From contig NZ_AUDQ01000001.1 of NCBI RefSeq assembly GCF_000425545.1, positions 372,001 through 436,000 of the forward strand: a stretch of DNA of 64,000 bases, written 5' to 3'. The stretch comes from Sporosarcina ureae DSM 2281. Its GTDB lineage: Bacteria; Bacillota; Bacilli; Bacillales_A; Planococcaceae. The notes below the pieces were generated by a model. That model saw nothing but the letters and a program-made list of their open reading frames with translations. It was not told where the DNA came from and did not search any database. The translations under genes were made by a program, and so were the position numbers. Of the stretch, positions 34,649-54,721 are shown piece after piece. Numbering within the stretch: the first letter of the stretch is position 1; each line of letters begins with the position of its first letter.

Positions 34649-35370
34649 GATTGAGCGGGTAAGGCTTGGGATTGAGCGGATAAGGCTTGGAATTGAGCGG
34701 TTAACCTGACTGATTGAGCGCTTGAAGCTTGATATAGAGCGGTTCACACGATTGATAGAGCGCTCTACGCCTGACTTTGAGCGGATTACTCGATTGATTG
34801 AGCGCTCCATGCCCAGCATTGAGCGCATAGCACAACCTATTGAGCGCTCCCTCAACATTGAGCGGATAGCTAGACCAATAGAGCGCTCCACTCCCAACAT
34901 TGAGCGGATAGCACAACCGATAGAGCACTCTGCCCCCAACATTGAGCGGATAGCAGGATCAATAGAGCGCTTCACGCCTGACATTGAGCGCAAAGCACAA
35001 CCGATTGAGCGCTCCCCCAGCATTGAGCGGGTAGCTCGATTGATAGAGCACTTTACCCCCAACATTGAGCGGATAGCTAGACTGATAGAGCGCTCCACTC
35101 CCAACATTGAGCGGATAGCACAACCGATAGAGCGCTTTACCCCCAACATTGAGCGGATAGCTAGACCAATAGAGCGCTCCACGCCCAGCATTGAGCGGAT
35201 AGCACAACCGATAGAGCGCTTCACACCTGACATTGAGCGGATAGCACAACCGATAGAGCACTCCACCCCCAGCATTGAGCGGATAGCACAACCGATAGAG
35301 CACTCCACCCCCAACATTGAGCGGATAGCACAACCGATAGAGCGCCCCACGACCAACATAGAGCACTCCC
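34649..35370 (+). repeat. GAGCG 21-bp periodic array 1 (about 34 units)
   Basis: About 720 bp in which the core ATTGAGCGGAT alternates with ATAGAGCGCTC at 21-bp steps (42-bp dimers). Spacers in this array are mostly AGCACAACCG and CACCCCCAAC. Three-base deletions occur in a few units (near 34850 and 35015). It begins 8 bp after the YjiH terminator, on the same strand, in a convergent intergenic region. Long frames run through both strands only because 21 is a multiple of three; none has a ribosome binding site. Confidence 0.92.
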
Positions 35371-35713
35371 CCAACAACACCATCCACCTTTATCAAATTC
35401 CAACACAAAAAAACTGCTCTCAATAAAGAGAGCAGCCAAATGAAACAACTTGAAAGCAACCCTGCTGGAATGTCGTGAATGTCCGCAAGTAAAGGGAGGG
35501 TTGCGTTTGGAAATTAGCGTGGCAAAGCAATGGTGGGCTTTTGTACGCTAATTACCAATGAATAGACGTGTACAGTTTGCTTTCAAGTGTTTACGCGATA
35601 TACGTGTATGCTGACGGGGTAACCGAAAGCCATCTATACAGTGGAGGCCTATTCCACTGCATAGATCACCTTCGAAATGTCAGCGACAAGTTTTGTCTTG
35701 CCGCTGTGATGAA
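35371..35713. other. 343-bp gap after array 1, with two hairpins
   Basis: Holds a minus-strand terminator-like hairpin at 35406-35435 (CTGCTCTC/GAGAGCAG plus a T-run), and a second hairpin at 35632-35666 (ATCTATACAGTGGA / TCCACTGCATAGAT, one mismatch, 7-nt loop) without a T-run. No gene seen. Confidence 0.6.
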
Positions 35714-36055
35714 TTACTTGGTTTCTACTGCCTCTGCCGGTAAGTGCTGAACTTTCACATCGAATGTCTTCAATTCATTTCCTAGGATTGGACTCGATAC
35801 AGTCGGTGCTTTGACGTCATGTGTTTTTGCATTTTCACGACTATGTAGCCAGCTATCGAAAAACTGACGGTCTTCCCACGTCGTACATACTTTTATTTCG
35901 TCATGTTCTTCGTTGTCTCCATTCAACAATACTTCCATGCGAATGAAGCCTTCAAATGTGTGAACAGATTTTGCTTTTGCAAAACGTGCGGTTACTTGCT
36001 CGCCTTTCCCTTTTTCAACATATATCGTATTAATTGCGATCATTTTCTGCATCAT
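35714..36055 (-). CDS. IsdG/HmoA-like heme-degrading monooxygenase
   Basis: A 113-residue ABM-fold protein. The residues expected for an IsdG-type heme monooxygenase are visible: Asn9 in the first strand (IAINTIYV), Trp in CTTWEDR (about 61) and His in SWLHS (about 71). It would open the porphyrin ring and release iron in the cytoplasm. It is the last gene of the heme uptake operon, overlapping the ankyrin gene by ATGA. Second ATG (residue 2) may be the real start. Confidence 0.85.
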   Translation of the reverse strand: MMQKMIAINTIYVEKGKGEQVTARFAKAKSVHTFEGFIRMEVLLNGDNEEHDEIKVCTTWEDRQFFDSWLHSRENAKTHDVKAPTVSSPILGNELKTFDVKVQHLPAEAVETK

Positions 36056-36480
36056 ACTACCTCCAATTTAATTGACTGTAAATATTCGAGGACGGGCGCT
36101 GATTGTGCCCCACCCACTGCTGCATGGCGAAGTAACAGAATGCCGTGTGGACCTTTCAGTTCGTCCCAGCTCGGATACCATTTCAACAACGCTTTCACGA
36201 TTTCGAGTTCACCGAGCATAGCAGCTGTGAATATATCCATACGTGCACCTTTTTCCAATAAATATTCCGCAATATCGCGATTGCCGGTATGCGCCGCAGC
36301 CCCGAGACCGCTTTCCCAGTCGTCACCACCCCAGTTCATGACAGCATGTACCAAATCAGGCTCCTGTTCAATCAGCTTTTGTACTTCTTCAAAATTCCCA
36401 TGTGCTGCAATCAAGTAGTCACGTACCAGCGCTTGATCAATGGGTTGCTTCTTTTCTACATCAGCCCTCATAGCACTCAC
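36052..36480 (-). CDS. Ankyrin-repeat protein in the heme operon
   Basis: A 142-residue protein with three to four ankyrin-like units (AAHGNFEEVQKLIEQEPDLVHA, AAHTGNRDIAEYLLEKGA, AAMLGELEIVKALLKWYP). No enzymatic motif. It overlaps the ATPase gene upstream by 20 bp and the IsdG-like gene downstream by 4 bp, so it is part of the operon. A heme-handling or protein-interaction role is only inferred from position. Confidence 0.8.
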   Translation of the reverse strand: MSAMRADVEKKQPIDQALVRDYLIAAHGNFEEVQKLIEQEPDLVHAVMNWGGDDWESGLGAAAHTGNRDIAEYLLEKGARMDIFTAAMLGELEIVKALLKWYPSWDELKGPHGILLLRHAAVGGAQSAPVLEYLQSIKLEVV

Positions 36481-37252
36481 CCTTTTCTAATGTACTTGGT
36501 GTGAAAAAGTATTTCCCATTATTCATGAAAATCTCTGCGTCGATTTCGAAAATGGAATGGAACATTTCTTTGCATAGCACGCATTGTGGAATTCCGTCAA
36601 AACGCACACTGCCGTCTTTCAACACAATGAGACGATCGCTGTAACTTGCCGCTTGGTTAATATCATGAAGAACCATGATGACAGTCATTCCGTACGTTTC
36701 ATTTAATTGTGTGACCAATTCCATGACTTCCAATTGATGCGAAATGTCTAAATACGTAGTAGGTTCATCTAGCAATAACACTTTCGGTCGTTGAGCAATT
36801 GCCATTGCAATCCACGCACGTTGACGTTCGCCACCGGATAATGACTGCAACATGCGATTCTTGTACTTCTCTAACTTCGTTACGCCGATTGCCCAGTCAA
36901 TAATCTCCTGATCTTCACGACTTAACTTGCCGTAGCCTGACCGATGAGGATGTCGTCCGAATTCTACCAACTCGCCTACAGTGACGTCGAGCTGATGATC
37001 TTGCATTTGCGGGAGCATAGCTAAATTACGAGCCACTTCTTGAGATTTCATTCGGTTCAATCGTTCGCCGTTTAGCAGAACTTCGCCGCTTCCAGGTGTG
37101 ATCAATCTAGAAATTAAGCGCAGAAATGTCGACTTACCCGAACCATTAGGGCCTAGCAAACTAACGATCTCCCCCTGCTTAATATGCAAATCAATGGACG
37201 TTAATTCGAATGAATCCGAATGACGATAGGTAAGTTCCTCAGTTATCAGCAA
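36461..37252 (-). CDS. Iron/heme ABC transporter ATP-binding protein (FecE-like)
   Basis: A 263-residue ATPase: Walker A GPNGSGKST (about 35), signature LSGGERQRAWIAMAIAQ, Walker B VLLLDEPTTYLD and switch His in VLHDINQAA. This is the FecE/FhuC branch for iron chelates or heme. The TTG start at 37252 has GGAGGG upstream and lies inside the permease gene's end (14-bp overlap). Confidence 0.9.
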   Translation of the reverse strand: MLITEELTYRHSDSFELTSIDLHIKQGEIVSLLGPNGSGKSTFLRLISRLITPGSGEVLLNGERLNRMKSQEVARNLAMLPQMQDHQLDVTVGELVEFGRHPHRSGYGKLSREDQEIIDWAIGVTKLEKYKNRMLQSLSGGERQRAWIAMAIAQRPKVLLLDEPTTYLDISHQLEVMELVTQLNETYGMTVIMVLHDINQAASYSDRLIVLKDGSVRFDGIPQCVLCKEMFHSIFEIDAEIFMNNGKYFFTPSTLEKGECYEG

Positions 37253-38273
37253 ATGAATCCCTCCGTTTTTGAATGAGATACAAGAAGAATGGCCCGCCGA
37301 GGAATGAGAGTAAAATTCCGACCGGCAGTTCGATTGGATTAAATACTGTACGGGCAATCGTGTCGGCAACTACGACTAGCAATCCTCCGCCGAGCGCAGA
37401 TGCCGGTAATAAAAACCGGTAATCTCCTCCTACTATGGAGCGCATAATATGTGGAACGACAAGACCAACGAAACCGATCAAACCCGAAACACTGACTGCC
37501 ATTCCCGCAAGTAGCGTACTCAACACAATGAGGAAAAATCGACTTCGCTCCACATGATGTCCGAGCAACTTCGCCACTTCGTCGCCAAGACGCAGTATAC
37601 GGATATGCTTGACCGAGAAGATAGCCAGCACGAATGCAGCAATCGCATAATAGATGATCATTTCAAACTGTACCCATCCGACACCTGCGATTCCTCCTGC
37701 AAGCCAAGGTAACACCGCTTGCACACGGTCGCTGTATAGTAGCATCAATGCACTCATACACGCACCGATTACCGCGTTAATTGCGACACCGACTAAGATG
37801 ATTCGTAAAGGCGATGCCCCGCCTCTCCATGACAATGCATAGATGACAACGGCAGTTGCAAGCGCTCCAAGAAATGCGGCAAGCGGTAAGAACATGATGT
37901 AGGCTGGATAAATAATCATAATGACTGTCGCGGCGAGTCCTGCTCCCGATGAGACGCCAATAATTCCTGGGTCAGCTAACGGGTTCCGCATAACTCCTTG
38001 TAATATGGCACCGGCGACTGCAAGGCTGATCCCGACAATCATGCCAACCAACACACGTGGAAAGCGAAGTTCCCATACAATTCGCCGTTCCATCGTGTCA
38101 TTGGCTATAAAGATTCCGTTCCAAATTTCCTGCATAGAGAACGAAACCGGGCCAATCATCAAGCTTAAGACAGCTGCGATGATGAGTAAGCTGCCACTCG
38201 TTACGAGGACGATGATCCGCTTTCTGGCAAGTGGATGACGTTCTTTCTGCGTCTGTTCTCCTGTTGCAATCAC
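37239..38273 (-). CDS. FecCD-family permease for iron/heme uptake
   Basis: A 344-residue permease with about ten helices and BtuC/FecCD motifs (RFPRVLVGMIVGISLAVAGA, NPLADPGIIGVSSGAGL, GLIGFVGLVVPHI). It starts one base after the lipoprotein gene ends, showing tight coupling. It works with the adjacent lipoprotein and ATPase. Confidence 0.92.
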   Translation of the reverse strand: MIATGEQTQKERHPLARKRIIVLVTSGSLLIIAAVLSLMIGPVSFSMQEIWNGIFIANDTMERRIVWELRFPRVLVGMIVGISLAVAGAILQGVMRNPLADPGIIGVSSGAGLAATVIMIIYPAYIMFLPLAAFLGALATAVVIYALSWRGGASPLRIILVGVAINAVIGACMSALMLLYSDRVQAVLPWLAGGIAGVGWVQFEMIIYYAIAAFVLAIFSVKHIRILRLGDEVAKLLGHHVERSRFFLIVLSTLLAGMAVSVSGLIGFVGLVVPHIMRSIVGGDYRFLLPASALGGGLLVVVADTIARTVFNPIELPVGILLSFLGGPFFLYLIQKRRDSFADN

Positions 38274-38274
38274 C

Positions 38275-39249
38275 TTATTTAACCTGTCCTAAACTTTCTT
38301 TCATCACGTCTAGTGCTTCCACTACTTTTGTTCCAGGGTTCGTACCGAATAAGTGGGAAGGTAAGACAATGACGTTTCCTGCTTTCACTGCATCTAAGTT
38401 TTTCCACGCTGGATTCTTTAACATTTCGCTTTCAAATGCCGCTTTGACAGCTTCCGGCTCACCGTGTGTAATCAACATCACCATTTCAGGATTACGTTCG
38501 ATGATTTTCTCGACGCTTAAGCTTGCATACTGTGGATATTTTTCTTCATTCGGGAAATCACTAGCAATATTTTCCCCACCAGCCAGTTCTAGTAGATTAC
38601 CTGATAATGAATTCGGAAGCGCCACCATGTATGTACCCGGTGCTCCGTATACTAATAAAGTTTTCACAGCATCTGCTTTGTCCGCTGTGCTTTTTTCAAT
38701 TTGTTCTGCGATAGTGTTTTGTATGGTTTTTGCTTCTTTCTCTTTATCAAACAGCTGACCGAATAGTCCAATCGTGTGTTGAATGTCTTCCACAGAGTTA
38801 GCTGCTGTGTAGACAGTCTTCGTTCCTTGGCGCTCCATATTCGCTTCATGTTGCTTGAAGCTTGGTGCAGCGATCAGGACTTCAGGATGTACTTCCGCAA
38901 TCTTCTCAAAATTCGGCTGATGCGGATTCCCTATTTCAGCGATGCCTTCTAAATCTTTATTCGGAGGTCCTTGCACTGTCGGTCGTCCATCTACTTCTAT
39001 TCCAAGCGCTAGAAGCATGTCGAGATCACCTGAACTTAGCGTGGCGACAGATTTTGGTGTTTCGTCGAATGTTACGGTTTGGCCTGTCATGTCTGTCACT
39101 TCGATGCTTGTATCAGTTGTTTTCTCCATCTCTTCTGCTTTTACTGCGGATGCGTCTGTTTTATCTTCCGCTTTTTCTTCCTCTGCACCGCACGCACTGA
39201 GTACAAACAGTAACATCAGTACGCTAAACACGCCTGCTAACCTTTTCAT
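38275..39249 (-). CDS. Iron/heme-binding lipoprotein (IsdE-like)
   Basis: A 324-residue substrate-binding protein. The signal peptide ends in the lipobox LSAC with lipidated Cys20, followed by an acidic linker and a class III binding fold (SVATLSSGDLDMLLALGIEVDGRP; NPEMVMLITHGEPEAVK). Lipid anchoring places it outside the membrane. Two Fur-box-like palindromes lie upstream. Association with an IsdG-like enzyme favours heme as ligand over siderophores (inference). Confidence 0.88.
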   Translation of the reverse strand: MKRLAGVFSVLMLLFVLSACGAEEEKAEDKTDASAVKAEEMEKTTDTSIEVTDMTGQTVTFDETPKSVATLSSGDLDMLLALGIEVDGRPTVQGPPNKDLEGIAEIGNPHQPNFEKIAEVHPEVLIAAPSFKQHEANMERQGTKTVYTAANSVEDIQHTIGLFGQLFDKEKEAKTIQNTIAEQIEKSTADKADAVKTLLVYGAPGTYMVALPNSLSGNLLELAGGENIASDFPNEEKYPQYASLSVEKIIERNPEMVMLITHGEPEAVKAAFESEMLKNPAWKNLDAVKAGNVIVLPSHLFGTNPGTKVVEALDVMKESLGQVK

Positions 39250-39273
39250 CTCTCTTCATTCCCCCTCGAATAT

Positions 39274-39292
39274 AATGAGAATGTTTCTCATT
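39274..39292. promoter_or_regulatory. Fur-box-like palindrome, proximal
   Basis: AATGAGAATGTTTCTCATT: perfect 8-bp arms around TGT, similar to the Fur 7-1-7 consensus, 25 bp upstream of the lipoprotein start. Confidence 0.72.
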
Positions 39293-39308
39293 GAGGAATA
39301 TCATAGTC

Positions 39309-39327
39309 GATAATGAGAATCATTGTC
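39309..39327. promoter_or_regulatory. Fur box, distal
   Basis: GATAATGAGAATCATTGTC matches the 19-bp Fur consensus at 17 positions. With the proximal site it predicts iron-repressed expression of the five-gene heme operon. Confidence 0.85.
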
Positions 39328-39423
39328 AAATAGATTTGTGAGAATGATTACTTTGTACTAGATTTGAGGTGTTGTAACTGGTGAGTAATTTGTACGTTAC
39401 CTAACAAGGAAACTCTTATTGTA

Positions 39424-39500
39424 GGGGGTCGTTGCTCGACTGGTTGTTGGGTACTGAAGTTAGTGAGTGTCTGCTTTCTAGACCCGCACAGGAAAGCACG
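39424..39500 (-). repeat. Truncated inverted relic of the structured repeat
   Basis: The reverse complement reads AGACACTCACTAACTTC then GTACCCAACAACCAGTCGAG, matching the tail of copies 1-4; a CGGGTCTAGAAAGC segment is also recognisable. The foldable core is absent. Confidence 0.7.
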
Positions 39501-39643
39501 TACAAGAACCAAAACCCAAAGCCGCTTCTTCCCCACCTATCACCATGCCTAAATCTTGAATGTAACCGCTAAAACCTGTTTCCTCCTCCATCATCAAGGG
39601 AATGCTAGCTATAACACAACCCCCTAAGAAAGGAGTGAATGGG

Positions 39644-40831
39644 ATGAGTACTGTACAAATCCTCATTTTATTAACCATAGGCTACGTCGCGATGACGATC
39701 GATAAAAAGCAGAAGAACTTTCCACTTCCTGTCTTTCTAGTCGCGATCGGTTTTGGGCTGTCATTCATCCCCTACTTCGATAGCATCAATATATCTAAAG
39801 AAATCATCTATACTATTTTCTTACCAGGACTGCTATTCACATCTGCGTACCACTACTCGGCCAGATCATTACGAAAGCATGCCAAAGTTATCGGAACGCT
39901 TAGTACTGCTGGTTTACTCGTGACCGCTCTCCTCTTAGGACTCGCTACATATTGGATGGGAGCGAGTATAGAGATTTCATTAGTAGGGGCATTATTGGTC
40001 GCTTCTATTTTGACGCCGACTGATCCTGTTTCTGTTGTGTCCATATTAAAAAAGTCGTTGGATGATCCTTCGGTTGCGGATATTGTCGACGGGGAATCTA
40101 TGATTAACGACGGGACTAGTGTCGTGTTATTCACTGTACTGTTGACGATGTTCACGACGCAGCAAAAGTTTGAATTTTGGTCATTTGTAGGAGAGTTTCT
40201 TTCCGTATCGATTGGTGGTGTGGCTACAGGATTAGTCGCAGGTTGGATAGTCAGTAAAGCGATTCACCTTTCAAAGCATCGGGAAAATCAAGTAGTACTC
40301 AGTATCATCATTGCGTACGGAGCGTTTCATTTAGCCGAAGCATTCGGGTTTTCAGGTGTATTGGCAACAGTTGCGGCGGGTATTATGTTATCTGCTGAAC
40401 TAGGACGTGCTGATGAGGAGGAAATGCACCGAGAGTCATTGGATGGGTTTTGGGATGTGGCGGAACCTGCGTTGCTTTCGATATTGTTTTTAGCTATCGG
40501 AATTGTGGCAGCTGACTACTTGTTCCCTTTGCATAATGGGTGGCTAGCAATCGGAATATTTATCGTTTCGATTATCATACGATTTATCGTAATTACCGGG
40601 ACGATGCAATTATTCTCAGGTTATCGAAAGTTATTAAACATCAAAAAAGCCTTGCTCCTATCATGGGCAGGCATTCGTGGAACGATGTCGATTTTCTTAT
40701 TGCTAAGCTTGGCTGATGCCGCAGACAGTTCAGCGGATGCTCTCGTTTCGTTAGGATTCGCCGTAGTCTTGTTGTCCCTCGTCGTGCAAAGTATTGGTAT
40801 TTATCCACTTTCAAAAGCACTCGAAAAGTAA
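39644..40831 (+). CDS. CPA1 family Na+/H+ antiporter
   Basis: A 395-residue membrane protein with about 12 helices and CPA1 motifs: ASILTPTDPVSVVSILK (about 124-140), VDGESMINDGTSVVLF (about 146-161) and LSWAGIRGTMSIFLLLSLA. No cytoplasmic RCK tail, unlike the antiporter at 13586. ATG at 39644 follows AAAGGAG. Its stop codon lies inside the loop of a terminator shared with the convergent fetB gene. Confidence 0.88.
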   Translation: MSTVQILILLTIGYVAMTIDKKQKNFPLPVFLVAIGFGLSFIPYFDSINISKEIIYTIFLPGLLFTSAYHYSARSLRKHAKVIGTLSTAGLLVTALLLGLATYWMGASIEISLVGALLVASILTPTDPVSVVSILKKSLDDPSVADIVDGESMINDGTSVVLFTVLLTMFTTQQKFEFWSFVGEFLSVSIGGVATGLVAGWIVSKAIHLSKHRENQVVLSIIIAYGAFHLAEAFGFSGVLATVAAGIMLSAELGRADEEEMHRESLDGFWDVAEPALLSILFLAIGIVAADYLFPLHNGWLAIGIFIVSIIIRFIVITGTMQLFSGYRKLLNIKKALLLSWAGIRGTMSIFLLLSLADAADSSADALVSLGFAVVLLSLVVQSIGIYPLSKALEK

Positions 40832-40849
40832 TTACTTCGAGTGCTTTTG
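40812..40849. terminator. Bidirectional terminator made of two gene ends
   Basis: CAAAAGCACTCGAA (40812-40825) pairs perfectly with TTCGAGTGCTTTTG (40836-40849). The stop codons of the two convergent genes abut (TAA 40829-40831, TTA 40832-40834) inside the loop, so both stems are coding sequence. Confidence 0.85.
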
Positions 40850-41599
40850 TTGTCGTTGATTCATTTGCATGCGTTCATTGAACAGAGTCGGATAGGAAAG
40901 TAACCCTAAACAAACACTCGTCAATGCAGCCGTTGTCAATAATAGAAATATGACTAAGATTTGAAATTGGACAGCCTCTAACGGGTCCGCCCCTGCAATG
41001 ATTTGACCGCTCATCATACCTGGCAATTGCACGAGTCCTATCGTCTTTTGGCTTTCAATTGTCGGGATCATACTTGCTTGAATAGAGCGCATCAATTGCT
41101 TATGTATCGCCTGTTTTGGTGTGCCGCCAAGTGACAAGATTAGTTCACTTTCCGAGCGATGCGCTTCAACTTCCGACACGAAACGATTGAGGAATAAAAT
41201 TGCTAGGACCATCGAATTTCCGATTACCATACCGGTCAATGAAATAATATATTGTGCAGTAGCTGGGACAATTTTGAAGCCTAGTAAGATACTTTGCGTC
41301 AACACTTCCAGTAATACAAACGTCACGATCAACTTCCATGTGATCCCTTTAATACCTTGGCCTTTTTTACGCGCATTTTGCACGGCTGCTCCAATCATCA
41401 GGATGACCATCAAGAAGATGAACATATAACTTTCCGAATCGAAGACAAACTTCAGTACGAAGCCTACCGCCACTAATTGCACAGTCGAACGGATCGTCGC
41501 GACAATCGTATCTTTCTCCAACTGCAATCCGAGTGTTTTGGACAGGACTAGCGGGATCAGCACAAAGATCAGTGTCAGGAATAAAGCAGTCGTACTCAT
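40832..41599 (-). CDS. fetB: FetB/YbbM (UPF0014) iron exporter permease
   Basis: A 255-residue permease with about seven helices and the UPF0014 motifs (RSTVQLVAVGFVL; GNSMVLAILFLNRF; QLPGMMSGQIIAGADPLEAVQFQ). With FetA it forms an ABC exporter linked to iron homeostasis and oxidative-stress resistance in E. coli. It overlaps the fetA reading frame by ATGA at 41596-41599. Confidence 0.88.
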   Translation of the reverse strand: MSTTALFLTLIFVLIPLVLSKTLGLQLEKDTIVATIRSTVQLVAVGFVLKFVFDSESYMFIFLMVILMIGAAVQNARKKGQGIKGITWKLIVTFVLLEVLTQSILLGFKIVPATAQYIISLTGMVIGNSMVLAILFLNRFVSEVEAHRSESELILSLGGTPKQAIHKQLMRSIQASMIPTIESQKTIGLVQLPGMMSGQIIAGADPLEAVQFQILVIFLLLTTAALTSVCLGLLSYPTLFNERMQMNQRQQKHSK

Positions 41600-42277
41600 G
41601 AAAAGTCCCCTTTCAAAAAGCGATGGACTGACGGGATATCTGAATGATCAAGTACAGATATTTCGCCGGCATCCACTAACTTCCCATCCACCATAATCCA
41701 TGCATACTGCCCCATTCGCTTCGCCTGCTCCAAGTTGTGCGTAATCCAGATGACCGTAATAGCATGCTGAACATGCAGTTTACGAATCAAATCCTCTACT
41801 TCATTCAACGAAGATGGATCTAGCGCAGACGTAATTTCATCCATCAACAAAATCTTCGACTGATTCAATAACGTTCTGGCAATCGATACTTTCTGCTGCT
41901 GACCACCCGACAAGTTCTGGCTGTCACGTTCAAGATACTCTCCTTCAAGACCGACCTGATCTAAAATATCCAACGCTTTTTCTTTACTCAACGTCTTGCC
42001 TTGTAAACGCAATGGCAGTGCCAAATTATCATAGACACTTCCAGCGATCATTGGTGAATTTTGTAACACCATCCCCACTAGTAGGACTCAGCAGACCGTT
42101 ACACATTTTTAATAAAGTTGTTTTCCCTGCACCCGAAGGCCCGACCAACACCGTAATCTCATTTGTAGGAAAAGATCCGGTTATCGTATCGAGAATCTTC
42201 GTGCCCTCCGCTTCAAACGATACATTTTGAAAATGAATCGCAGGCTCATACAAGGTTGTATTCTGTTCACTATCCAT
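41596..42277 (-). pseudogene. fetA: FetA/YbbL ATP-binding subunit with an internal deletion and frameshift
   Basis: From ATG 42277 the protein reads normally through Walker A ([12 protein letters not shown]) to LLSPTSG, then at about 42073 enters a wrong frame and stops. The next frame continues [18 protein letters not shown] (Q-loop), signature LSGGQQQKVSIAR and Walker B ILLMDEITSALD to 41596. The normal ~21 residues between SPTSG and the Q-loop strand are missing, so this is a deletion of about 60-70 bp not divisible by three, not a single-base sequencing slip. The exporter is probably non-functional although fetB is intact. Confidence 0.85.
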
Positions 42278-42301
42278 TTATTTCACCTTTTCCACACTTC
42301 T

Positions 42302-43006
42302 TCATTCATCTATTTTCAATAAATCCAATGGAGTAATGATGCCGATCAGTTTCTCATCTTTACCACCTTGCTCGGTGATGAGCAAGGCCTGGAGACGTTT
42401 TCCCGACACAATGGACTTTCTAAAAAATCCTTCTGCTTCATAAACCGACATCGAACTTTTGACAAAACGATAGGTTTTCTTTCTTTTCTCGTGATTATAT
42501 ACGTCTAATAATGTCGGTATTTCCCGGGAAATGCAATCTGTTTCCTGATCCGCTAACCAATTCATGATGCCATCTGCGGTAATTAATCCGATAAATTGAC
42601 CTTTTTTGTAAATAGGTAATTGATTGATTTTCCATTTTCTAACTAAACGCAGACCTGTGGCGAGTGATTCATCTGCTTGCACGATATGTACTTTTCCAGA
42701 GAATAAATCTTTGACCGTGACCGGGTTGGATAATCGTTCATCTATATTCTCAATCAGTTTTACCACGTCATCATGAGGCTCCGCTATAGCATAGTCAAAG
42801 CCTGTCCGATTATGCACAATCGCGTTCCGTAAACTGCCAAACTCTCGCAAATCATCTTCATAATGAGCAACTAACGCATGTTGCGATTTAGCTCGATCGA
42901 TTTTTTTTGAGAATGAAAAATGATTCGGCAAACCTGTAATCTTCATTAACGATTTATCGATTCGGTTAAACGCAATGAGAAAACGCTCTGAATTTTTATG
43001 CTCCAT
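42302..43006 (-). CDS. CBS-domain protein with HEPN-like N-terminal region
   Basis: A 234-residue protein. Residues 1-95 are helical and include FGSLRNAIVHN (about 56-66), the R-x4-H pattern of HEPN domains; residues ~95-234 are a CBS pair (VTVKDLFSGKVHIVQADES, LPIYKKGQFIGLITADGI, LIGIITPLDLLK). CBS pairs bind adenine nucleotides and regulate attached domains. Lies 24 bp upstream of fetA on the same strand. Function unknown. Confidence 0.75.
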   Translation of the reverse strand: MEHKNSERFLIAFNRIDKSLMKITGLPNHFSFSKKIDRAKSQHALVAHYEDDLREFGSLRNAIVHNRTGFDYAIAEPHDDVVKLIENIDERLSNPVTVKDLFSGKVHIVQADESLATGLRLVRKWKINQLPIYKKGQFIGLITADGIMNWLADQETDCISREIPTLLDVYNHEKRKKTYRFVKSSMSVYEAEGFFRKSIVSGKRLQALLITEQGGKDEKLIGIITPLDLLKIDE

Positions 43007-43098
43007 GACACATCGCCCCTATTCTAGGCAAAGTATAGCATATTTCAATTCCATTTCGCGCCTTTAGACTTCATGGAAAGCTCTACTTTTATAGATTC

Positions 43099-43138: not shown

Positions 43139-43143
43139 ACTAA

Positions 43144-43661: not shown

Positions 43662-43670
43662 AGCCATTAT

Positions 43671-43707
43671 AAAAAAATGTACACAGCGCACTGTGTACAT
43701 TTTTTTA
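43671..43707 (+). terminator. Strong terminator before array 2
   Basis: AAAAAAATGTACACAG pairs with CTGTGTACATTTTTTT around CGCA; usable in both directions. Confidence 0.9.
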
Positions 43708-43722
43708 TTCTATTTGGTAAGT

Positions 43723-43967
43723 GATTGAGCGGATGAACGGATTGATAGAGCGCTTGTGGGCTGGGTTTGAGCGGATGAATGATCGCATTGAGCGCTCGAG
43801 GGCCGCGATTGAGCGGATGAATGATCACATTGAGCGCTCGCGGGCTGCGATTGAGCGGATTGACGTTCGCATAGAGCGCTTGCAGGCCACGATTGAGCGG
43901 TTAAACGGTCACATTGAGAGCTCACAAGCCGCAATAGAGCGAATAACCGTATACATAGAGCGCTCAT
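43723..43967 (+). repeat. GAGCG 21-bp periodic array 2 (about 12 units)
   Basis: The same core (ATTGAGCGGAT alternating with ATTGAGCGCTC or ATAGAGCGCTT) repeats every 21 bp, but spacers differ from array 1 (GAATGATCAC, GCGGGCTGCG). It begins 16 bp after the terminator at 43671-43707, GAGCG on the strand of the terminated gene, and runs up to the 3' end of the convergent PfkB kinase gene. Confidence 0.9.
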
Positions 43968-43987: not shown

Positions 43988-44923
43988 TCACTCCAATTCA
44001 TCCGCACGAGGCATCGCGGAAAGCGCACCGACTTTCATTGCACATAACGCACCCATTTGATTGCCGAACTCAATATGTGCAAGCATTTCTTCGAGCGATT
44101 TGGGCTTGCCATTCAAATGAAGACCGCGAAGTACGCCCGCCAAGAAAGCATCTCCTGCTCCTGTGGTATCTACGGGATCGATTGGCTCTACTGCTACATG
44201 ATGTTGTGCTCCTTCAATGACGGCCAGAGTTCCCTCCTCACCCATCGTCATCATAATAACAGGGATATTATAGGTGGCCAGTTGATCTAGTGCTTTTTCT
44301 ATACTCGATTCTTGCATGAGAAAAGTGAGTTCTTCTTCCGTAAGTTTTAGCAAGTCCGTCTGATCTAAAAATGAAAGAATGGTGTTACGACATTTCTCTT
44401 CACTTTCCCAACGTAACGGACGAATATTAGGATCTACTGAGATGAATAATCCATTTTCTTTTGCTAATTCAACAGCTCTTTTAGTTGTCTCCAAAGCAGT
44501 AGGCTGGAACATCGTACCGGAACATATATGTAAAATCGAAGCATTTTGGAAAGTTTCCTCTTGTAAATTACTCGGTTGGACTTGAAGATCAGGCGTGTCG
44601 TCTATATATTTTACAAATATCCGATCGTATTCCGGAGTCAAATGTACATAAACACGGTTTACTTTCTTCTCCGGTGAACGGACAGCAAACGTTACATCGA
44701 CACCTTCTTGTCGCAGCTGATTTTCTGCAAAGATCGAATCCTCGTCTTCCCCGATTACGGTGATTAATGAAGACTTTGCACCCAGGCGCGAGACACCCGC
44801 CGCTACATTGACTGTTGCACCACCAAGGAATGTTGAGAATTCGGTGTTCGTCTCGTCTGTTGCGATGTAGTCTACGAAAATGTCTCCGTATATTAGGACA
44901 TGTTTTTCTTGTTGATTCTTCAT
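43988..44923 (-). CDS. PfkB family carbohydrate kinase
   Basis: A 311-residue kinase: YGDIFVDYIA, GGATVNVAAGVSRLGAKS (about 34-51) and catalytic DTTGAGDAFLAGVLRGL (about 248-264). Closer in pattern to fructokinase/2-dehydro-3-deoxygluconokinase groups than to ribokinase; the substrate is not assignable. ATG 44923 follows GAGGAG. Confidence 0.85.
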   Translation of the reverse strand: MKNQQEKHVLIYGDIFVDYIATDETNTEFSTFLGGATVNVAAGVSRLGAKSSLITVIGEDEDSIFAENQLRQEGVDVTFAVRSPEKKVNRVYVHLTPEYDRIFVKYIDDTPDLQVQPSNLQEETFQNASILHICSGTMFQPTALETTKRAVELAKENGLFISVDPNIRPLRWESEEKCRNTILSFLDQTDLLKLTEEELTFLMQESSIEKALDQLATYNIPVIMMTMGEEGTLAVIEGAQHHVAVEPIDPVDTTGAGDAFLAGVLRGLHLNGKPKSLEEMLAHIEFGNQMGALCAMKVGALSAMPRADELE

Positions 44924-46024: not shown

Positions 46025-46025
46025 G

Positions 46026-46063: not shown

Positions 46064-46069
46064 CAGTGT

Positions 46070-47746: not shown

Positions 47747-47936
47747 ATCTAGCAACCTCCTTTTAGTGTCAATTATACAGGTTATTGCTAGATTTGACAG
47801 GAAGTTTGGAAAAATTGGTACATAGTTTTGAATTCGGTGTTGTAGCGGAGTAATTGACATTTTTTACACGGGGATATGGGTAGAATGTGCTTTTAGTTTG
47901 GATGTTTATTTTTGGAATGCTCAATAAAATATTTAT

Positions 47937-48421
47937 GCGCTCTATCTAACTAGTGATTCGCTCTATGATATGTGGTGAGCGCTCTATGGCGTGAGATATC
48001 CGCTCTATTGCGGGCCCTAAGCGCTCTATCACACCGACTATACGCTCTATAATGGCCCGCAATCGCTCTATAGCACAGGCTATACGCTCTATGACACGCG
48101 ATTCCGGCTCTATAGTGTCACCCGCTCTATCACACACGGCTTCCGCTCTACTGCGGGCCCTAAGCGCTCTATCACACCGGCTATACGCTCTATAATGGCC
48201 GGCAATCGCTCTATAGCACGGGCTATCCGCTCTATGACAAGCAATTCCGGCTCTATAGTGTCCACCCGCTCTATCTAACTGGTGATTCGCTCTATGATAT
48301 GTGGTGAGCGCTCTATGGCGTGAGTTATCCGCTCTATTGCGGGCCCTAAGCGCTCTATCACACCGACTATACGCTCTATAATGGCCCGCAACCGCTCAAT
48401 CACACGCCATATCCGCTCAAT
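47937..48421 (-). repeat. GAGCG 21-bp periodic array 3
   Basis: Reads CGCTCTAT on the plus strand, so ATAGAGCG on the minus strand, mostly every 21 bp. Two steps are shortened to 17 and 18 bp (near 48110-48125 and 48255-48270). A block of about 115 bp (47942-48060) is repeated nearly identically at 48277-48392, with a third diverged copy between. It begins about 30 bp after the rbs operon terminator, GAGCG on the rbs strand. Just beyond it is a C10-type homopolymer (48422-48431). Confidence 0.9.
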
Positions 48422-48452
48422 CCCCCCCCCCGCCCCACTCCCTCCATAAAAC

Positions 48453-48491
48453 AAAAAAGCCCCCCAGCCAAAAAAAACTGGCCAGAGAGCT
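48453..48491 (-). terminator. Terminator of the rbs operon
   Basis: On the minus strand AGCTCTCTGGCC (48491-48480) pairs with GGCTGGGGGGCT (48469-48458), including G-U pairs, followed by TTTTTT. Confidence 0.78.
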
Positions 48492-48513
48492 CCCCTCAAA
48501 CTAAAACTCACAC

Positions 48514-49449
48514 TTACTCTTTAATTAACTCCAAATCAACTGGAATATCCGCCTCTACATCTTCACCGTTCAACAGAGCAACCGCTGCTTCCATTGCCTT
48601 GACCCCGATTTCCTCGGGCTTCTGAGCAATCGTTGCGGACAACTTACCATCTTTGACAGATGCTACAGCGTCGTCTGTTGCGTCAAATCCAATGACCGGA
48701 ATATCCTTGCCCGCTGACTGAATGGCTTCTAACGCACCTAACGCCATCTCATCATTATGCGCGAATACGCCTTGGATGTCTGGGTTAGCTTGCAAAATAT
48801 TCTCCATTACTGTCAAACCTTCTGCACGGTTAAAGTTTGCTGTTTGTTTCGCCACGATATTCACCTTGCCGTCAACCGCTTCGTTAAAGCCGGCTCCACG
48901 GTCACGCGCTGCGGATGAACCTGAGATTCCTTCAAGTTCTGCTACTTGCGGTTGATCTTCGCCAAGTAACTCGAGCAGGTATTCTCCAGCTAACACACCG
49001 CCTGCTTTATTATCCGAGGCAATATGAGAAACGACTTCTCCACCTTCTGCTCTGCGGTCTACTGTGATGACTGGAACGTTCGAGCCGTTTGCTGATTCCA
49101 CTGCAGATACAACCGCTTCAGAATCCGTAGGGTTAATGATTAACAAATCTACACCTTGTTGGATTAAATCTTCTACGTCACTCGCTTGTTTAGACGCATC
49201 ATCTTGTGCATCGACAACGATCACTTCAGATCCAGACTCTTTCGCCTGTTCCTTCACACCTTCACTCAATGTCACGAAGAATGGATTGTTAAGCGTCGAT
49301 ACGGAAAGACCGACTTTATACACTTTGTCGCCATCATTTCCAGCCTCGCCTTGATCATCTGATGAAGAATTTGAACCGGGTTGCTCTAATGAACAAGCAG
49401 CCAAAACAAGCACGATGGCCATAAGTAGTAACCATTTGATATTTTTCAT
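48514..49449 (-). CDS. rbsB: Ribose-binding lipoprotein RbsB
   Basis: A 311-residue periplasmic-binding-type lipoprotein: lipobox LAAC with Cys19, Ser/Asp-rich linker, then the RbsB fold (VGLSVSTLNNPFFVTLSEGVKE; PVITVDRRAEGGEVVSHIASDN; AHNDEMALGALEA; VIGFDATDD). It delivers ribose to RbsAC. The ATG at 49449 is preferred to the GTG at 49458, which is too close to AAGGAG. Last gene of the rbs operon. Confidence 0.95.
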   Translation of the reverse strand: MKNIKWLLLMAIVLVLAACSLEQPGSNSSSDDQGEAGNDGDKVYKVGLSVSTLNNPFFVTLSEGVKEQAKESGSEVIVVDAQDDASKQASDVEDLIQQGVDLLIINPTDSEAVVSAVESANGSNVPVITVDRRAEGGEVVSHIASDNKAGGVLAGEYLLELLGEDQPQVAELEGISGSSAARDRGAGFNEAVDGKVNIVAKQTANFNRAEGLTVMENILQANPDIQGVFAHNDEMALGALEAIQSAGKDIPVIGFDATDDAVASVKDGKLSATIAQKPEEIGVKAMEAAVALLNGEDVEADIPVDLELIKE

Positions 49450-49464
49450 ACAATTCACATCTCC

Positions 49465-50406
49465 TTATGCGGTTTTTTTGCGATCTAAGAGTACTGCAAT
49501 TAATATAACTGCACCCTTAACTACCTGTTGGAAGAAAGAGGATACGCCTATCAAATTCAAACCATTATTCAAGACACCTATAATCAATGCACCGATTAAT
49601 GTACCGACAATCCAACCGCGACCGCCAGTCAAGCTTGTCCCGCCAAGTACAACGGCCGCAATCGCATCGAGTTCAAACATATTACCCGCTGTTGGCTGTG
49701 CGGAGTTTAGACGTGACGTCAAAATAAGTGACGCGATTGCCGTTAGACCACCTGCCAATGAATAGACATAAATCTTCACTCGATCGACATTAATTCCAGA
49801 AAGACGTGACGCTTCTTCATTGCCACCGACCGCATACACACGGCGTCCAAATGTCGTTTTCTTCAATATAAAGTACAGCACTGCAAAGGAGATCGCCATC
49901 GTGATGACCGGAACCGGAATACCGAAAATATATCCTTTTCCGAGCATTTGGAATGTGAATGAATCGCCAAGTCCTGAAATCGGGCGTCCTTTAGTATAGA
50001 CTAAAGTCAATCCGCGGAAAATCGTCATCGTCGCGAGTGTTGCGATAAATGGTGCGACCTTCCCTTTCGCAATAATCAATCCGTTGATTGCACCGAGCAG
50101 CACACCTAGTAATACGCCGAGTAGCATAGCTAAAATCGGATCCATACCGCCTGACATCATACCTGCTGTCACGGCACCGGTTAACGCGAGAATCGATCCA
50201 ACTGATAAATCAATTCCACCTGTCAAAATAACAAACGTCATCCCGAACGCAATCAATGCGTTAATTGACACTTGACGCAATACGTTGAACAAGTTGTTCA
50301 GCGTTAAAAAACTTGGACTCATAATGGAAATAATGACCACGATCAATAATAAACCAATGAACGGTCCTAATTTCTGTAATGACGATTTCATATTAGTCTT
50401 GGACAA
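49465..50406 (-). CDS. rbsC: Ribose ABC transporter permease RbsC
   Basis: A 313-residue permease with about ten helices and the family region [17 protein letters not shown] and [20 protein letters not shown]. The TTG start at 50406 has AGGAGG eight bases upstream and overlaps the end of rbsA by 14 bp. Confidence 0.95.
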
Positions 50407-51889
50407 CTTTGTCACCTCCTGTTGCAAAATGCATAATTCGTTCTTGTGTCATTTCCTCTTTCGGTATATCTGCCATCAATTGACCTTCATGCATGACGAG
50501 CACGCGGTCTGCCATCCCGATCACTTCCGGTAGTTCGGATGAAATCATCACAATCGCGACTCCACGCTCAGCCAATTCATTGATGATGCTGTAAATTTCT
50601 TTCTTCGCACCCACGTCGACACCTCTTGTAGGTTCATCCAAAAACAGAATATCTGGCTCAATACCAAGCCATTTTGCGATGACGACCTTTTGCTGATTAC
50701 CACCACTCAATGACTTGACGATTTGTTCTGGTCCAGACGTGCGAACACCGAGACGTTTAGACATCATGTCATACAACTGACTTTCTTTCGTTCGTTGAAT
50801 GACACCTGAATTTGAAATTCGGTTGAAGTTTGTCAGGCACATATTTTCCCGAACCGAAAAATCGAGAATCAACCCTTCAGTTTTCCGGTCTTCTGTGACA
50901 TATCCGATCCCAAGCTTTTTCGCTTGCAACGGATTTGAAATAATCACTTGCTCCCCATCAATGAAAATCTTGCCCGCAGTCGGTTTCTTAAAGCCGAAAA
51001 TCGATTGAATCACTTCCGTACGCCCCGCACCCATCAATCCGGCAATACCGACGATTTCACCTTTTCGCACTTCAAACGATACATCTTCAAAATAGTCATT
51101 GCGCGAGAGACTTTCTACTTTTAGTTTCACATCGCCAATTTCACACGCTCGTGCTGGGAATCGTTCACCCAATTCACGTCCAACCATCATCTGCACAATT
51201 TCTTCAAACGTCGTGTCCTTTATATTCCGCACACCGACGTATTGACCGTCCCGTAATATAGTAATACGATCGCACATCGCGAAAATCTCTTCCATCCGAT
51301 GTGATATATAAACGAATGAAACGCCTTCCGCTTGCAATGCTCGAACAGTTTTAAATAACGTTTTGATTTCACGATCCGTCAATGCTGCAGTCGGCTCATC
51401 CATAATAATTAATTCTGCATTAGAAGAAACCGCCTTCGCAATCTCAATAATCTGCTGTTTACCAACAGATAAATCACGCGTGATGGTCCGCGCATCAACA
51501 TGCAAGCCTAACTTCGACAGAATTTCTTCTGCTTGACGATTCATCTCTTTCGTCTTCAAAATCCCGCTTTTCCCGAATGTCTTTTCATTACCTAAAAAGA
51601 AGTTCTCTGCAACGGTCAAGTCAGGTAAAATATTGAGCTCTTGGTGAATGACCGCAATTCCCGCTGCTTCAGCTTCCTTGGCGTTCTTAAACTCCACTTT
51701 CTTACCTTTGACCGAGATCTCTCCTGAATCACGCGTATAGATCCCTGTCAAAATCTTCATCATCGTAGATTTCCCTGCACCGTTCTCTCCCATGAGCGCA
51801 TGGATTTCACCTTTGACTACATTAAATTCCACATTGTCGAGTACTTTATTTCCATTGAAACTTTTCGATATCCCGCTCATCGCAATCAT
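50393..51889 (-). CDS. rbsA: Ribose ABC transporter ATP-binding protein RbsA
   Basis: A 498-residue double ATPase: first Walker [10 protein letters not shown], signature LSVGKQQ, Walker [12 protein letters not shown]; second half with degenerate Walker [10 protein letters not shown], signature LSGGNQQK, and [11 protein letters not shown], typical of sugar CUT2 importers. ATG 51889 gives the family length; its ribosome site (AGTGGGTG) is weak, and the gene follows rbsD by 16 bp, so translation may be partly coupled. Confidence 0.94.
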
Positions 51890-51905
51890 CTCTGCACACC
51901 CACTT

Positions 51906-52295
51906 TCAGAATATGACGCCTGACTGGACGATAATATTGGCATAAGGTGTCGCCTCTCCTGTACGAATAATCACTTTCGATTGTCTTGATCGTTCTTTTA
52001 ATTGATCATGTGTCAGCTCATCTATCGGACATTCTAGTTGTGTAATTTCACTATAGACTGTAGGATTCTCTTCTTTTATTTCACTTGCAATATATACTTT
52101 TTCTGCTTGAAAGTCTTTCAGTAATTCCAATAATATCTCCGTGAATTCAGGTTTTCCAATCGTATACGAAAGATCGATACACGGAACACCTTCAGGAATC
52201 GGCAGACCGCAATCTGCAATCGTCAATTGATCAGTGTGACCCATTTTAGCCAGCACAGCCGCAATATCGCGATTGATTATGCCGTGCTTTTTCAT
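51906..52295 (-). CDS. rbsD: D-ribose pyranase RbsD
   Basis: A 129-residue pyranase: [22 protein letters not shown] with the catalytic His20, IADCGLPIP and a C-terminal [20 protein letters not shown]-type end. It interconverts pyranose and furanose ribose before phosphorylation. Overlaps rbsK by ATGA. Confidence 0.96.
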
Positions 52296-53173
52296 CGACT
52301 CTCCTCCAAACGTGCTGCCACTTCTTCAAATGAAGGCATGCCGCCTTGTGCGCCGAACTTCTCTACGGAAAGTGAAGCGGCCGCATTCGCGAAACGAACT
52401 GCTCGTTCCAGTTCCATCCCCGCTACTATTCCATGTGCAAGCGCTCCGTTAAACGTATCACCCGCACCTGTCGTATCCACGGCATGTGTCTTAAAGCCTT
52501 CTACTATGACATGCTTTTCTCCATCAAAGAATCGTGCGCCGTCATTACCTAGCGTAATAATTAAACGGTTCGGGTACTTCTCTAACGCACTCACCATGTC
52601 CATGCCGAAGATTTGTTCACATTCCGTTTCATTCGGCGTTAAATACGTAATCGAGGGCATCATGTCAAGTTCGAATCCACGCGCTGGAGCAGGATTCAAC
52701 ATCACCGGAACGCCAATGGCTTGGCACTTCGCTAATGTATAAACGACAGTAGGAATTGGTATTTCCAATTGAAGCATTACCAAGTCGCTACGTTTGATGA
52801 GATCTTCTATTTCGTCAATATGTGCTGGCATCAACAAAGAGTTAGCACCCGGTACGACGATAATCCGATTATCGCCTTCGGACAGCAAAATATTCGCAAT
52901 GCCGGAAGCCCCGTCCACAGTAGCTACACCGGTGACGCCGACTGTATTCTGTTGCAGATTATTCACAATACTCGTACCGAATAAATCATTTCCCACACAC
53001 GCAACCATATGTGTTTCACTACCCAGTCGTGCTGCAGCAATTGCCTGATTCGCACCTTTTCCACCTGGCACTGTGTCGAACACATTTCCAAGAACCGTCT
53101 CTCCCTGGTTCGGGAAGTTTTCCGCGCCAACTACCAAATCCATATTGGCACTGCCAATTACCGTTATCATCAT
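52292..53173 (-). CDS. rbsK: Ribokinase RbsK
   Basis: A 293-residue ribokinase: VIGSANMDLVVGAENFPNQGE, GGKGANQAIAAARLG and DTTGAGDTFNGALAHG. It phosphorylates D-ribose at O5. Start overlaps the rbsR stop (ATGATGA), so two ATGs are possible. Confidence 0.96.
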   Translation of the reverse strand: MMITVIGSANMDLVVGAENFPNQGETVLGNVFDTVPGGKGANQAIAAARLGSETHMVACVGNDLFGTSIVNNLQQNTVGVTGVATVDGASGIANILLSEGDNRIIVVPGANSLLMPAHIDEIEDLIKRSDLVMLQLEIPIPTVVYTLAKCQAIGVPVMLNPAPARGFELDMMPSITYLTPNETECEQIFGMDMVSALEKYPNRLIITLGNDGARFFDGEKHVIVEGFKTHAVDTTGAGDTFNGALAHGIVAGMELERAVRFANAAASLSVEKFGAQGGMPSFEEVAARLEESR

Positions 53174-54147
53174 GCTTCACTCCTCGTTGTTTGGCGAATG
53201 AGCAACTCTGCCGGAATCAGTACTTCACGTTCCGTCAGCTCTTGCCCTTTAATTAATTCAATGAGCATCCTCGCTGCCATGGCACCCATTCTATATAAGT
53301 CCTGCGCTACCGTCGTTAAGCCTGGTGTTAATTGGCTCGCAAGCATCGTTCCATCATATCCAACGATTTGAAGCTGATTCGGTACATGAATACCCGCTGA
53401 ATACGCGGCTTTCATTGCACCTGCTGCGGTCACGTCGCTGCTCGCAAAAATCCCATCAATTGACACTTCTTGCAAAATCTTTTTCACCATCGTTTCCGCT
53501 ATATCAAAATGGAAGGGACATTCAATAATATGTGTTTCTATATTCTTCCCCTTTACCGCATCCATGAATCCAGCAAATCGATCATCAGCAGGACCTAATC
53601 CTGAAGGCCCGCGCATACAAAGAATGTTTCGGCAACCGCTATCCAATAAATGCTCAGTTCCTATACGAGCGCCTTCGCGGTTATCCGTCGCAATATACGG
53701 TATCGACGAATGAATTCTTCGATCGATTGCTACAATGGGGATATCCAGCCCCATATAATGCTCCGCTTCTACATGATTCGACGCAACAATAAACCCCGCC
53801 ACATATTTCTGTTGCAGAGTCTTTACATAATTAATTTCCTTTTCAAGATCCTCATCCGAGTTACACAAAATCAACGTGTATCCGTACGCCAGCGCAACAT
53901 CTTCAATCGCACGCGCCAGTTCCGGAAAAAACGGATTGACGATATCCGGAACAATCAAGCCAATAAAAGTAGATTGCTTCGTACTAAGAGAACGCGCAAT
54001 CATACTAGGCTGATAGTTCAACTCCTCCACCGCCTTAGCAATCACCCGTTTCGCCTCTTCACTTATGTATCCTTTATTATTTAAATAGCGTGAAACAGTC
54101 GCAACTGAAACTCCAGCAGCTTTAGCCACATCCCGTATATTCGCCAA
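53170..54147 (-). CDS. rbsR: LacI-family regulator of the ribose operon
   Basis: A 325-residue LacI protein: HTH NIRDVAKAAGVSVATVSRYLN at 3-23 and the hinge/effector domain (TFIGLIVPDIVNPFFPELARAIE). It is the first gene of rbsRKDACB, repressing the operon in the absence of ribose or its phosphate (family knowledge). TTG start at 54147 with TAGGTG upstream; a palindromic operator lies 25-45 bp upstream. Confidence 0.93.
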   Translation of the reverse strand: MANIRDVAKAAGVSVATVSRYLNNKGYISEEAKRVIAKAVEELNYQPSMIARSLSTKQSTFIGLIVPDIVNPFFPELARAIEDVALAYGYTLILCNSDEDLEKEINYVKTLQQKYVAGFIVASNHVEAEHYMGLDIPIVAIDRRIHSSIPYIATDNREGARIGTEHLLDSGCRNILCMRGPSGLGPADDRFAGFMDAVKGKNIETHIIECPFHFDIAETMVKKILQEVSIDGIFASSDVTAAGAMKAAYSAGIHVPNQLQIVGYDGTMLASQLTPGLTTVAQDLYRMGAMAARMLIELIKGQELTEREVLIPAELLIRQTTRSEA

Positions 54148-54170
54148 CTATTTCACCTACATTCTGTTCT

Positions 54171-54190
54171 ATGTGGTACCGGTTACACAT
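54171..54190. promoter_or_regulatory. LacI-type operator upstream of rbsR
   Basis: ATGTGGTACCGGTTACACAT: near-palindrome with the central CG and flanking TGT.../...ACA typical of LacI/CcpA family sites. It could be bound by RbsR, CcpA or both. Confidence 0.7.
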
Positions 54191-54307
54191 AATGATAACA
54201 GACGGAGTTTTTTAGTGTCAATAGCGAAGTGGATTTAGGTGGGAGTAGGGTTTATTGAGTGAATATTGGGTTAGATTGTGGGGTTGTTGTGAGGATTTAC
54301 TAGGCGG

Positions 54308-54721
54308 GATTGAGCGGTTATACAGCTGTTTAGAGCGGATAGCGTGATACATTGAGCGGGTATGACTGCTGCATAGAGCGCTCGTGGACTTGGATTGAGC
54401 GGATAGCGCGGGCGATAGAGCGCTTAGGCCGACACTTTGAGCGCTCGCGGACAGGCTTTGAGCGGATGGCGCGAGCGATAGAGCGCTTCGACCAACACAT
54501 AGAGCGCTCGTGGACTTGGATTGAGCGGATAGCGCGGGCGATAGAGCGCTTGAGACGACACATTGAGTGCTCGCGGATATGGTTTGAGCGGATGGCGTGA
54601 GCGATAGAGCGCTTGAGACGACACATTGAGCGCTCGCGGACAGGCTTTGAGCGGATAGCACGGGCTATTGAGCGCTTTAGCCGAAACAAAGAGCGCTCGC
54701 GGACATCCTTTGAGCGGATAC
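54308..54721 (+). repeat. GAGCG 21-bp periodic array 4 (about 20 units)
   Basis: Cores TTGAGCGGAT, ATAGAGCGCTT and TTTGAGCGCTC every 21 bp, organised in ~84-bp higher-order repeats; spacers (GCGCGGGCG, GTGGACTTGG, GACGACAC) are private to this array. It lies between the divergent rbsR and GRAM-like genes, so unlike the other three it is not behind a terminator. Confidence 0.9.

What the first reader, a model, noticed from the sequence alone, without database searches (positions are those of the whole stretch)
34649..54721. A family of GAGCG arrays with 21-bp (two-turn) periodicity at four intergenic loci
Seen directly: at 34649-35370, 43723-43967, 47937-48421 and 54308-54721 a core TTGAGCG or ATAGAGCG recurs every 21 bp. 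The 10-11 bp between cores are similar within an array but different between arrays, so only the core is conserved across loci. A 21-bp step puts every core on the same face of the helix. Many units contain the palindrome GAGCGCTC. This pattern fits multivalent binding of a sequence-specific protein (nucleoid organisation, anchoring, or insulation), or a processed RNA. I know of no described system with this signature.
Basis: partly seen in the sequence, partly recalled or inferred. Interest (0 to 1): 0.88.

Follow-up and report, generated by a model that had tools for sequence, protein, structure and literature searches.

The report
Replication-polar 21-bp arrays in Bacillales
Between the genes of this Sporosarcina bacterium and many of its relatives lie dozens of arrays in which the same short DNA word recurs every two turns of the helix, mostly in conserved places and facing the same way relative to chromosome copying, which points to an undescribed protein-binding or chromosome-organising element.

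Summary
The window (Sporosarcina) has four intergenic arrays with 30, 11, 22 and 21 exact GAGCG cores, spaced almost always 21 bp. The whole genome has 400+202 pattern matches against 0 in the control. An unbiased scan of intergenic DNA finds arrays at lag 21 and almost none at other lags from 12 to 40.
Between orthologous arrays of two species the core diverges 1-4% per site, spacers mostly 18-35%, flanks about 10%. Place and orientation are kept (18 of 18 loci), while array length varies several-fold. Arrays are intergenic, enriched between convergent genes (odds ratio about 4), depleted between divergent ones, and polar: GAGCG lies opposite the leading strand in 53 of 63 arrays, including convergent sites (19/24).
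Genomes differ in core ('dialects'): ATWGAGCG, AAYGAGCGGGT, TTTGGTGCG, GTTGGACACTT and others. The class recurs in 14 of 19 genera of the family and, with other cores and 20-21-bp pitch, in Bacillaceae.
Coding, RNA, uptake-sequence and Chi readings are disfavoured. Best reading: helically phased binding arrays for an unidentified DNA-binding protein. Binder and function are not shown. I found no description in the held literature.

The parts
34649..35370 (+). Array 1: 30 exact GAGCG cores, 42-bp dimers and a ~207-bp super-repeat, between convergent genes (yjiH-like Gate protein 33245-34597 + and ABM monooxygenase 35714-36055 -); a terminator-like hairpin and T-run lies on either side
   Evidence: arrays at the same locus in P32b, P2, P34, an S. 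ureae MAG, G018 and G047
43723..43967 (+). Array 2: 11 exact cores, 42/84-bp repeats, starts just behind a terminator-like hairpin at about 43668-43705, before the 3' end of the pfkB-type kinase gene (43988-44923 -)
   Evidence: orthologous arrays in G018 and G047
47937..48421 (-). Array 3: 22 exact cores in minus orientation, ~143-bp super-repeat, downstream of a sugar-binding-protein gene (48514-49458 -); an exception to the polarity rule
54308..54750 (+). Array 4: 21 exact cores, 63/126-bp repeats, between divergent genes (LacI-type regulator 53170-54147 - and GRAM-domain protein 54838-55158 +)
   Evidence: orthologous array in G018 aligned unit by unit

Best explanation
The arrays are DNA-level binding platforms: tandem asymmetric sites of about 8-10 bp (here ATWGAGCG[G/C]) set 21 bp apart, so that many copies of one DNA-binding protein sit on the same face of the helix and act together. 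They lie mostly at the 3' ends of genes, above all between convergent genes, and point against the leading strand, so they probably serve a polar or topological task there, such as a chromosome-organising or insulating hub. Core and protein drift together between species, giving dialects. Shown: arrays, pitch, core conservation, location, polarity, dialects. Inferred: the bound protein, multivalency, co-drift and the task.
For: Core divergence 1.4-4.2% per site against mostly 18-35% in spacers and about 10% in flanks of orthologous arrays. Exactly 21 bp in 408 of 525 core-core steps of the own genome. Lag 21 is the only clearly enriched lag without assuming a motif, in the own genome and in a Sporosarcina genome that has no GAGCG arrays. 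Same place and orientation at 18/18 loci G000-G018 and 9/10 loci G000-G047. 56 of 57 arrays intergenic. Convergent sites enriched (OR 4.05, p 8e-7), divergent depleted (p 0.003). GAGCG opposite the leading strand in 53/63 arrays, in 19/24 at convergent sites (p 0.007) and in 3/3 cases where codirectional genes run against replication. Core singletons outside arrays are not clearly enriched (15 against 9.3 expected), so the signal resides in the array. Recurrence with other cores in the family and in Bacillaceae.
Against: No binding protein was identified and no binding data exist. Some genomes hold several core families, which would need several proteins. Steps of 20, 22 and 18 bp occur, so phasing is not absolute. 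Intrinsic terminators at gene ends facing arrays are only slightly more frequent than elsewhere (34/72 against 64/172), so the arrays neither replace nor clearly accompany terminators. Orientation-dependent stability of repeats could produce the polarity without function. Array loci of G000, G018 and G047 are partly orthologous, so their orientation counts are not independent (G065 and G154 are outside this clade).
Confidence: 0.5

Rival explanations
1. Polar signals for a machine that moves along DNA, such as the replication fork (polar pausing or barrier sites) or a chromosome translocase of the FtsK/SpoIIIE or SMC type. The array direction tells the machine which way it is going.
For: Polarity relative to replication, not to neighbouring genes: 53/63 arrays, 19/24 at convergent sites, 3/3 in discordant codirectional cases; also in another genus (G154, 14/18).
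Against: Known translocase signals are dispersed single sites (from memory), while here the signal is in arrays of about 5-50 copies at a few dozen loci per genome and core singletons are not clearly enriched. About 16% of arrays point the other way.
Confidence: 0.2
2. Satellite-like DNA without a host function: tandem arrays that grow and shrink by slippage and unequal exchange, share sequence by recombination, and persist in one orientation because that orientation is more stable during replication.
For: Array lengths differ several-fold between orthologous loci, there are higher-order repeats, and the same spacer strings occur at different loci of different species (GGCTCGCGGAGTTTGAGCGG in L085 and in C5 arrays of G000).
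Against: Slippage and conversion do not keep a 5-bp core at 1-4% divergence amid spacers at mostly 18-35%, nor the same core among arrays whose spacers are unrelated; positions and orientation are conserved.
Confidence: 0.2
3. Transcribed arrays acting as RNA (processed repeats or sponge RNAs).
For: Arrays lie just behind terminators in several cases; folding energy is below shuffled sequence in all eight tests (z -1.5 to -4.8).
Against: The excess is modest and not tied to one strand of the motif; GAGCG/GAGCGCTC repeats alone can give it. No Rfam family. Location between convergent terminators (array 1) argues against steady transcription.
Confidence: 0.06
4. Protein-coding heptapeptide repeats ([I/F/L]-E-R-x-x-x-x), 21 bp being seven codons.
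For: The arrays are open in several frames on both strands, and GAGCG at 21 bp can also arise in coding DNA, which probably explains many hits of the phage-collection scan (those hits were not individually translated).
Against: Frame-breaking steps (20, 22, 26, 38, 41) are frequent, GAG does not alternate with GAA in the window arrays as a glutamate codon would, only low-complexity coiled-coil-type Pfam matches appear, and other species have a 20-bp pitch.
Confidence: 0.02

Closest known systems
REP/BIME elements of enterobacteria (from memory)
   Same: Intergenic, many loci, at 3' ends of transcription units, bound by proteins (gyrase, IHF, Pol I)
   Different: REPs are 35-40-bp imperfect palindromes with hairpin potential, not 21-bp asymmetric cores with variable spacers
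Plasmid iterons and partition (parC/parS-type) arrays (from memory)
   Same: Tandem protein-binding sites of ~20-22 bp pitch, multivalent, phased
   Different: One locus per replicon beside rep/par genes; here dozens of chromosomal loci without a linked gene of that kind
DNA uptake sequence dialects of Neisseriaceae (from memory)
   Same: Short asymmetric word repeated genome-wide, often near terminators, with clade-specific dialects around a conserved core
   Different: DUS are dispersed singletons; here words outside arrays are not clearly enriched
KOPS/SRS and Chi (from memory)
   Same: Short words polar relative to replication, differing between species
   Different: Dispersed single sites on the leading strand; here arrays with GAGCG opposite the leading strand, and the B. 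subtilis Chi word AGCGG present in only about half of the units
Eukaryotic alpha-satellite with CENP-B box (analogy only, from memory)
   Same: Tandem monomers in higher-order repeats with a short conserved protein-binding box amid fast-evolving sequence
   Different: Different domain of life, monomer size and scale

Membership tests
REP/BIME | Palindromic 35-40-bp unit able to form a hairpin | tested here: not met
   Unit is 21 bp, core asymmetric; GAGCGCTC in only 2-7 units per window array
REP/BIME | Intergenic, near 3' ends of genes | tested here: met
   56/57 intergenic; convergent sites enriched, divergent depleted
DNA uptake sequences | Word enriched as dispersed single copies through the genome | tested here: not met
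   ATWGAGCGS outside arrays 15 observed, 9.3 expected in 456 kb
Chi (AddAB) sites | Conserved recognition word (AGCGG in B. subtilis), dispersed, co-oriented with the leading strand | tested here: not met
   Base after GAGCG is G in 54% (G000) and 44% (G047) of units; GAGCG opposite leading strand in 53/63
KOPS/SRS translocase signals | Replication-polar word | tested here: met
   53/63 arrays polar
KOPS/SRS translocase signals | Dispersed single sites | tested here: not met
   Signal confined to arrays
KOPS/SRS translocase signals | Read by the FtsK/SpoIIIE gamma domain | not testable with these tools
   Needs binding or translocation assays
Plasmid iterons / partition arrays | Tandem phased binding sites beside a rep or par gene | tested here: not met
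   The window neighbours examined (yjiH-like, pfkB kinase, sugar-binding protein, LacI regulator, GRAM protein and others) are not rep/par genes
CRISPR array | Repeats of 24-48 bp separated by unrelated unique spacers | tested here: not met
   Repeat core 5-9 bp, pitch 21 bp, spacers similar within arrays
Coding heptad repeats | Reading frame kept by indels of multiples of three | tested here: not met
   Steps of 20, 22, 26, 38, 41 bp common
Known RNA families (Rfam 15) | Covariance-model match | tested here: not met
   No match at gathering score in the window

The most novel reading that the evidence does not exclude
Bacillales chromosomes carry a previously undescribed class of cis element: dozens of helically phased, replication-polar binding arrays at gene 3' ends, read by an unknown, fast-drifting architectural protein whose specificity and sites change together from species to species.
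Probability: 0.4. Interest if true: 0.9.

Novelty: categorically new. Interest (0 to 1): 0.8.

Why it matters
A class of element with the same pitch, place and polarity but a changing word, spread through a large bacterial order, would show that these bacteria have a dedicated multivalent DNA-binding system that has escaped notice because the words differ between species and the arrays look like junk repeats. It gives a direct test: the array itself is the bait. It also offers a natural record of co-drift between a DNA-binding protein and its sites.

Tried and rejected
Literature searches on 21-bp repeats, GAGCGCTC, Planococcaceae/Lysinibacillus/Bacillales repeats and minisatellites at convergent genes gave nothing relevant; the library lacks most subscription papers. 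The viral-contig scan with the GAGCG pattern hit many phage contigs, probably coding E-R heptads, and was dropped as uninformative; the hits were not translated one by one. A first guess that oriC lies at coordinate 0 of G047 was wrong; GC skew and dnaA place it near 1.86 Mb. Local GC skew of short stretches misjudged the leading strand where arrays dominate it, so dnaA-based arms were used for the final counts. Chi, uptake sequence, coding and RNA readings were tested and set aside. Two requests for regions failed on length.

Full report
Observation. They hold 30, 11, 22 and 21 exact GAGCG cores; array 3 is in minus orientation. Steps are almost all 21 bp, or 42 where one core is degenerate, with a few of 18, 22, 38 and 39. 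Many arrays are built of 42-bp dimers (units with GAGCGG often alternate with units with GAGCGC) and of longer super-repeats. The window lies in a Sporosarcina genome of 3.32 Mb.

More than chance. In the own genome the three-core pattern matches 400 times forward and 202 reverse against 0 and 0 for the reversed pattern. Distances between GAGCG words in 456 kb peak only at multiples of 21. To avoid choosing the motif, I scanned intergenic DNA for low-identity tandem periodicity at every lag from 12 to 40: the own contig gives 8 arrays at lag 21, one each at 13 and 24 and none elsewhere; 44 named Bacillales loci give 14 at lag 21, 5 at lag 20, 2 at lag 40 and none elsewhere.

Core against spacer. 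Over 557 units of 32 arrays in the own genome the three bases before GAGCG carry about 0.8-1.0 bit, the first bases after it 0.4-0.8, and the spacer 0.0-0.4 (the core itself was the search key, but a motif-free scan of the same contig recovers the same array loci). At orthologous loci of the own genome and G018 (flanks about 90% identical) the five core positions diverge by 1.4-4.2%, the positions just before them by 11-21% and the spacer by 18-35%. The core is therefore more conserved, and the spacer less conserved, than the surroundings. Alignment of repeats can favour core-to-core matching, but the colinear pairs (for example L175/L188, L176/L189) show the contrast without ambiguity.

Place. 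Of 57 arrays in the own genome and G047 (complete, 3.24 Mb), 56 are intergenic. With G154, 28 of 68 lie between convergent genes against 91 of 618 intergenic gaps over 60 bp (odds ratio 4.05, p 8e-7), and 4 of 68 between divergent genes against 126 of 618 (p 0.003). Genes were called by a simple script, not by a published gene finder. Both flanks identify the same locus with the array in the same orientation at 18 loci between G000 and G018 (none inverted) and at 9 loci between G000 and G047 (one inverted). The array 1 locus behind yjiH holds arrays in P32b, P2, P34, an S. ureae MAG, G018 and G047, with very different lengths and spacers. In S. aquimarina the same gap holds a degenerate 21-bp array of another word (CGAACCAA/CGCACCAAA), read directly from the sequence.

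Polarity. With dnaA as origin marker, the GAGCG strand is opposite to the leading strand in 67 of 83 array loci of four complete genomes. In the sampled stretches of three genomes it is so in 53 of 63 arrays, in 19 of 24 at convergent sites where neighbouring genes give no direction (p 0.007), and in all 3 arrays between codirectional genes that run against replication; no case follows the genes against replication. So the arrays appear to be oriented by replication rather than by transcription. G000, G018 and G047 share some loci, so these counts overstate independence; G065 (9 of 9) and G154 (14 of 18, another genus) repeat the result. Window array 3 is an exception.

Spread and dialects. 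GAGCG at exact 21-bp pitch occurs in 116 of 261 genomes of the family (14 of 19 genera), with counts up to 535 in one genome; single-digit counts may be chance or coding, and zero counts say nothing about other words. The surrounding word differs: AAYGAGCGGGT (G010, G065), TTGAGCGCG (G051, G053), TTCTAYGAGCGCTT (G122-125), CCCGAGCG (G158, G159). Other genomes use other words: TTTGGTGCG in G027 (111 pair matches), G048, G046 and G056, and in G041, which has no GAGCG arrays, GTTGGACACTT, GTTATCACCGC and CATAAC arrays at lag 21 (6 against 1 at any other lag). Outside the family, Lederbergia has TCTATTAGAYG arrays at several loci with 20-21-bp steps, B. timonensis TAGTGACAGTATTT arrays with 20-bp steps, and Pontibacillus, Jeotgalibacillus and Fictibacillus give examples in single loci. 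Some genomes hold two or more words (S. luteola L092, G041).

Mechanism. Invariant asymmetric core, free spacer, two-turn pitch, conserved place and orientation point to cooperative binding of a protein along one face of DNA. That a protein binds, that it drifts with its sites, and that the task is chromosomal organisation or insulation at gene 3' ends are inferences; I give the binding reading 0.5. The polarity keeps open a role for a moving machine (0.2), and orientation-dependent repeat stability keeps open a passive origin (0.2). Coding is disfavoured by frame-breaking steps, RNA by the absence of a strand-specific folding signal, uptake sequences and Chi by the tests in the membership table.

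Known systems. REP/BIME, iterons, DUS dialects and KOPS each share one or two properties and fail on another that was tested; what defines them is taken from memory. I found no report of such arrays in the held literature, which does not include most subscription journals, so novelty is provisional.

Noticed in passing
window 35400-35712, minus strand: Block of ~290 nt behind the ABM monooxygenase gene, ending in a terminator-like hairpin, conserved across Sporosarcina (10 sequences) with helices such as CTTGAAAGC/GCTTTCAAG and CGCAA-CCCTCCC-TTGCG; candidate structured RNA with a C-rich loop, no Rfam match, only 2 pairs with double changes.
   Followed up: partly
L092:13840-14010, L114:11352-11486, L105:4473-4617, L117:11407-11490: Arrays of the same kind with a 20-bp instead of 21-bp pitch; the one in L114 starts directly behind a terminator-like hairpin.
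   Followed up: partly
L131:9183-9923 (G175): A genome with no GAGCG arrays has an array of GCGACGGAAAGAA words running straight into a second array of AAAAGCTGGATAGAACCATC words.
   Followed up: no
L347:7941-8041 (G223) and L114:11352-11486: The word GACAGTATT recurs in arrays of a genome of the same family (21 bp) and of B. timonensis (20 bp).
   Followed up: no
L086 (Sporosarcina sp. P13), behind yjiH: In place of the array there are long direct repeats containing CTTCGGCACGTGGGGGATTGCCTCCCGCC.
   Followed up: no
L166:6446 (G000) against L154:17204 (G047): The only orthologous array found in inverted orientation relative to its flanks.
   Followed up: no
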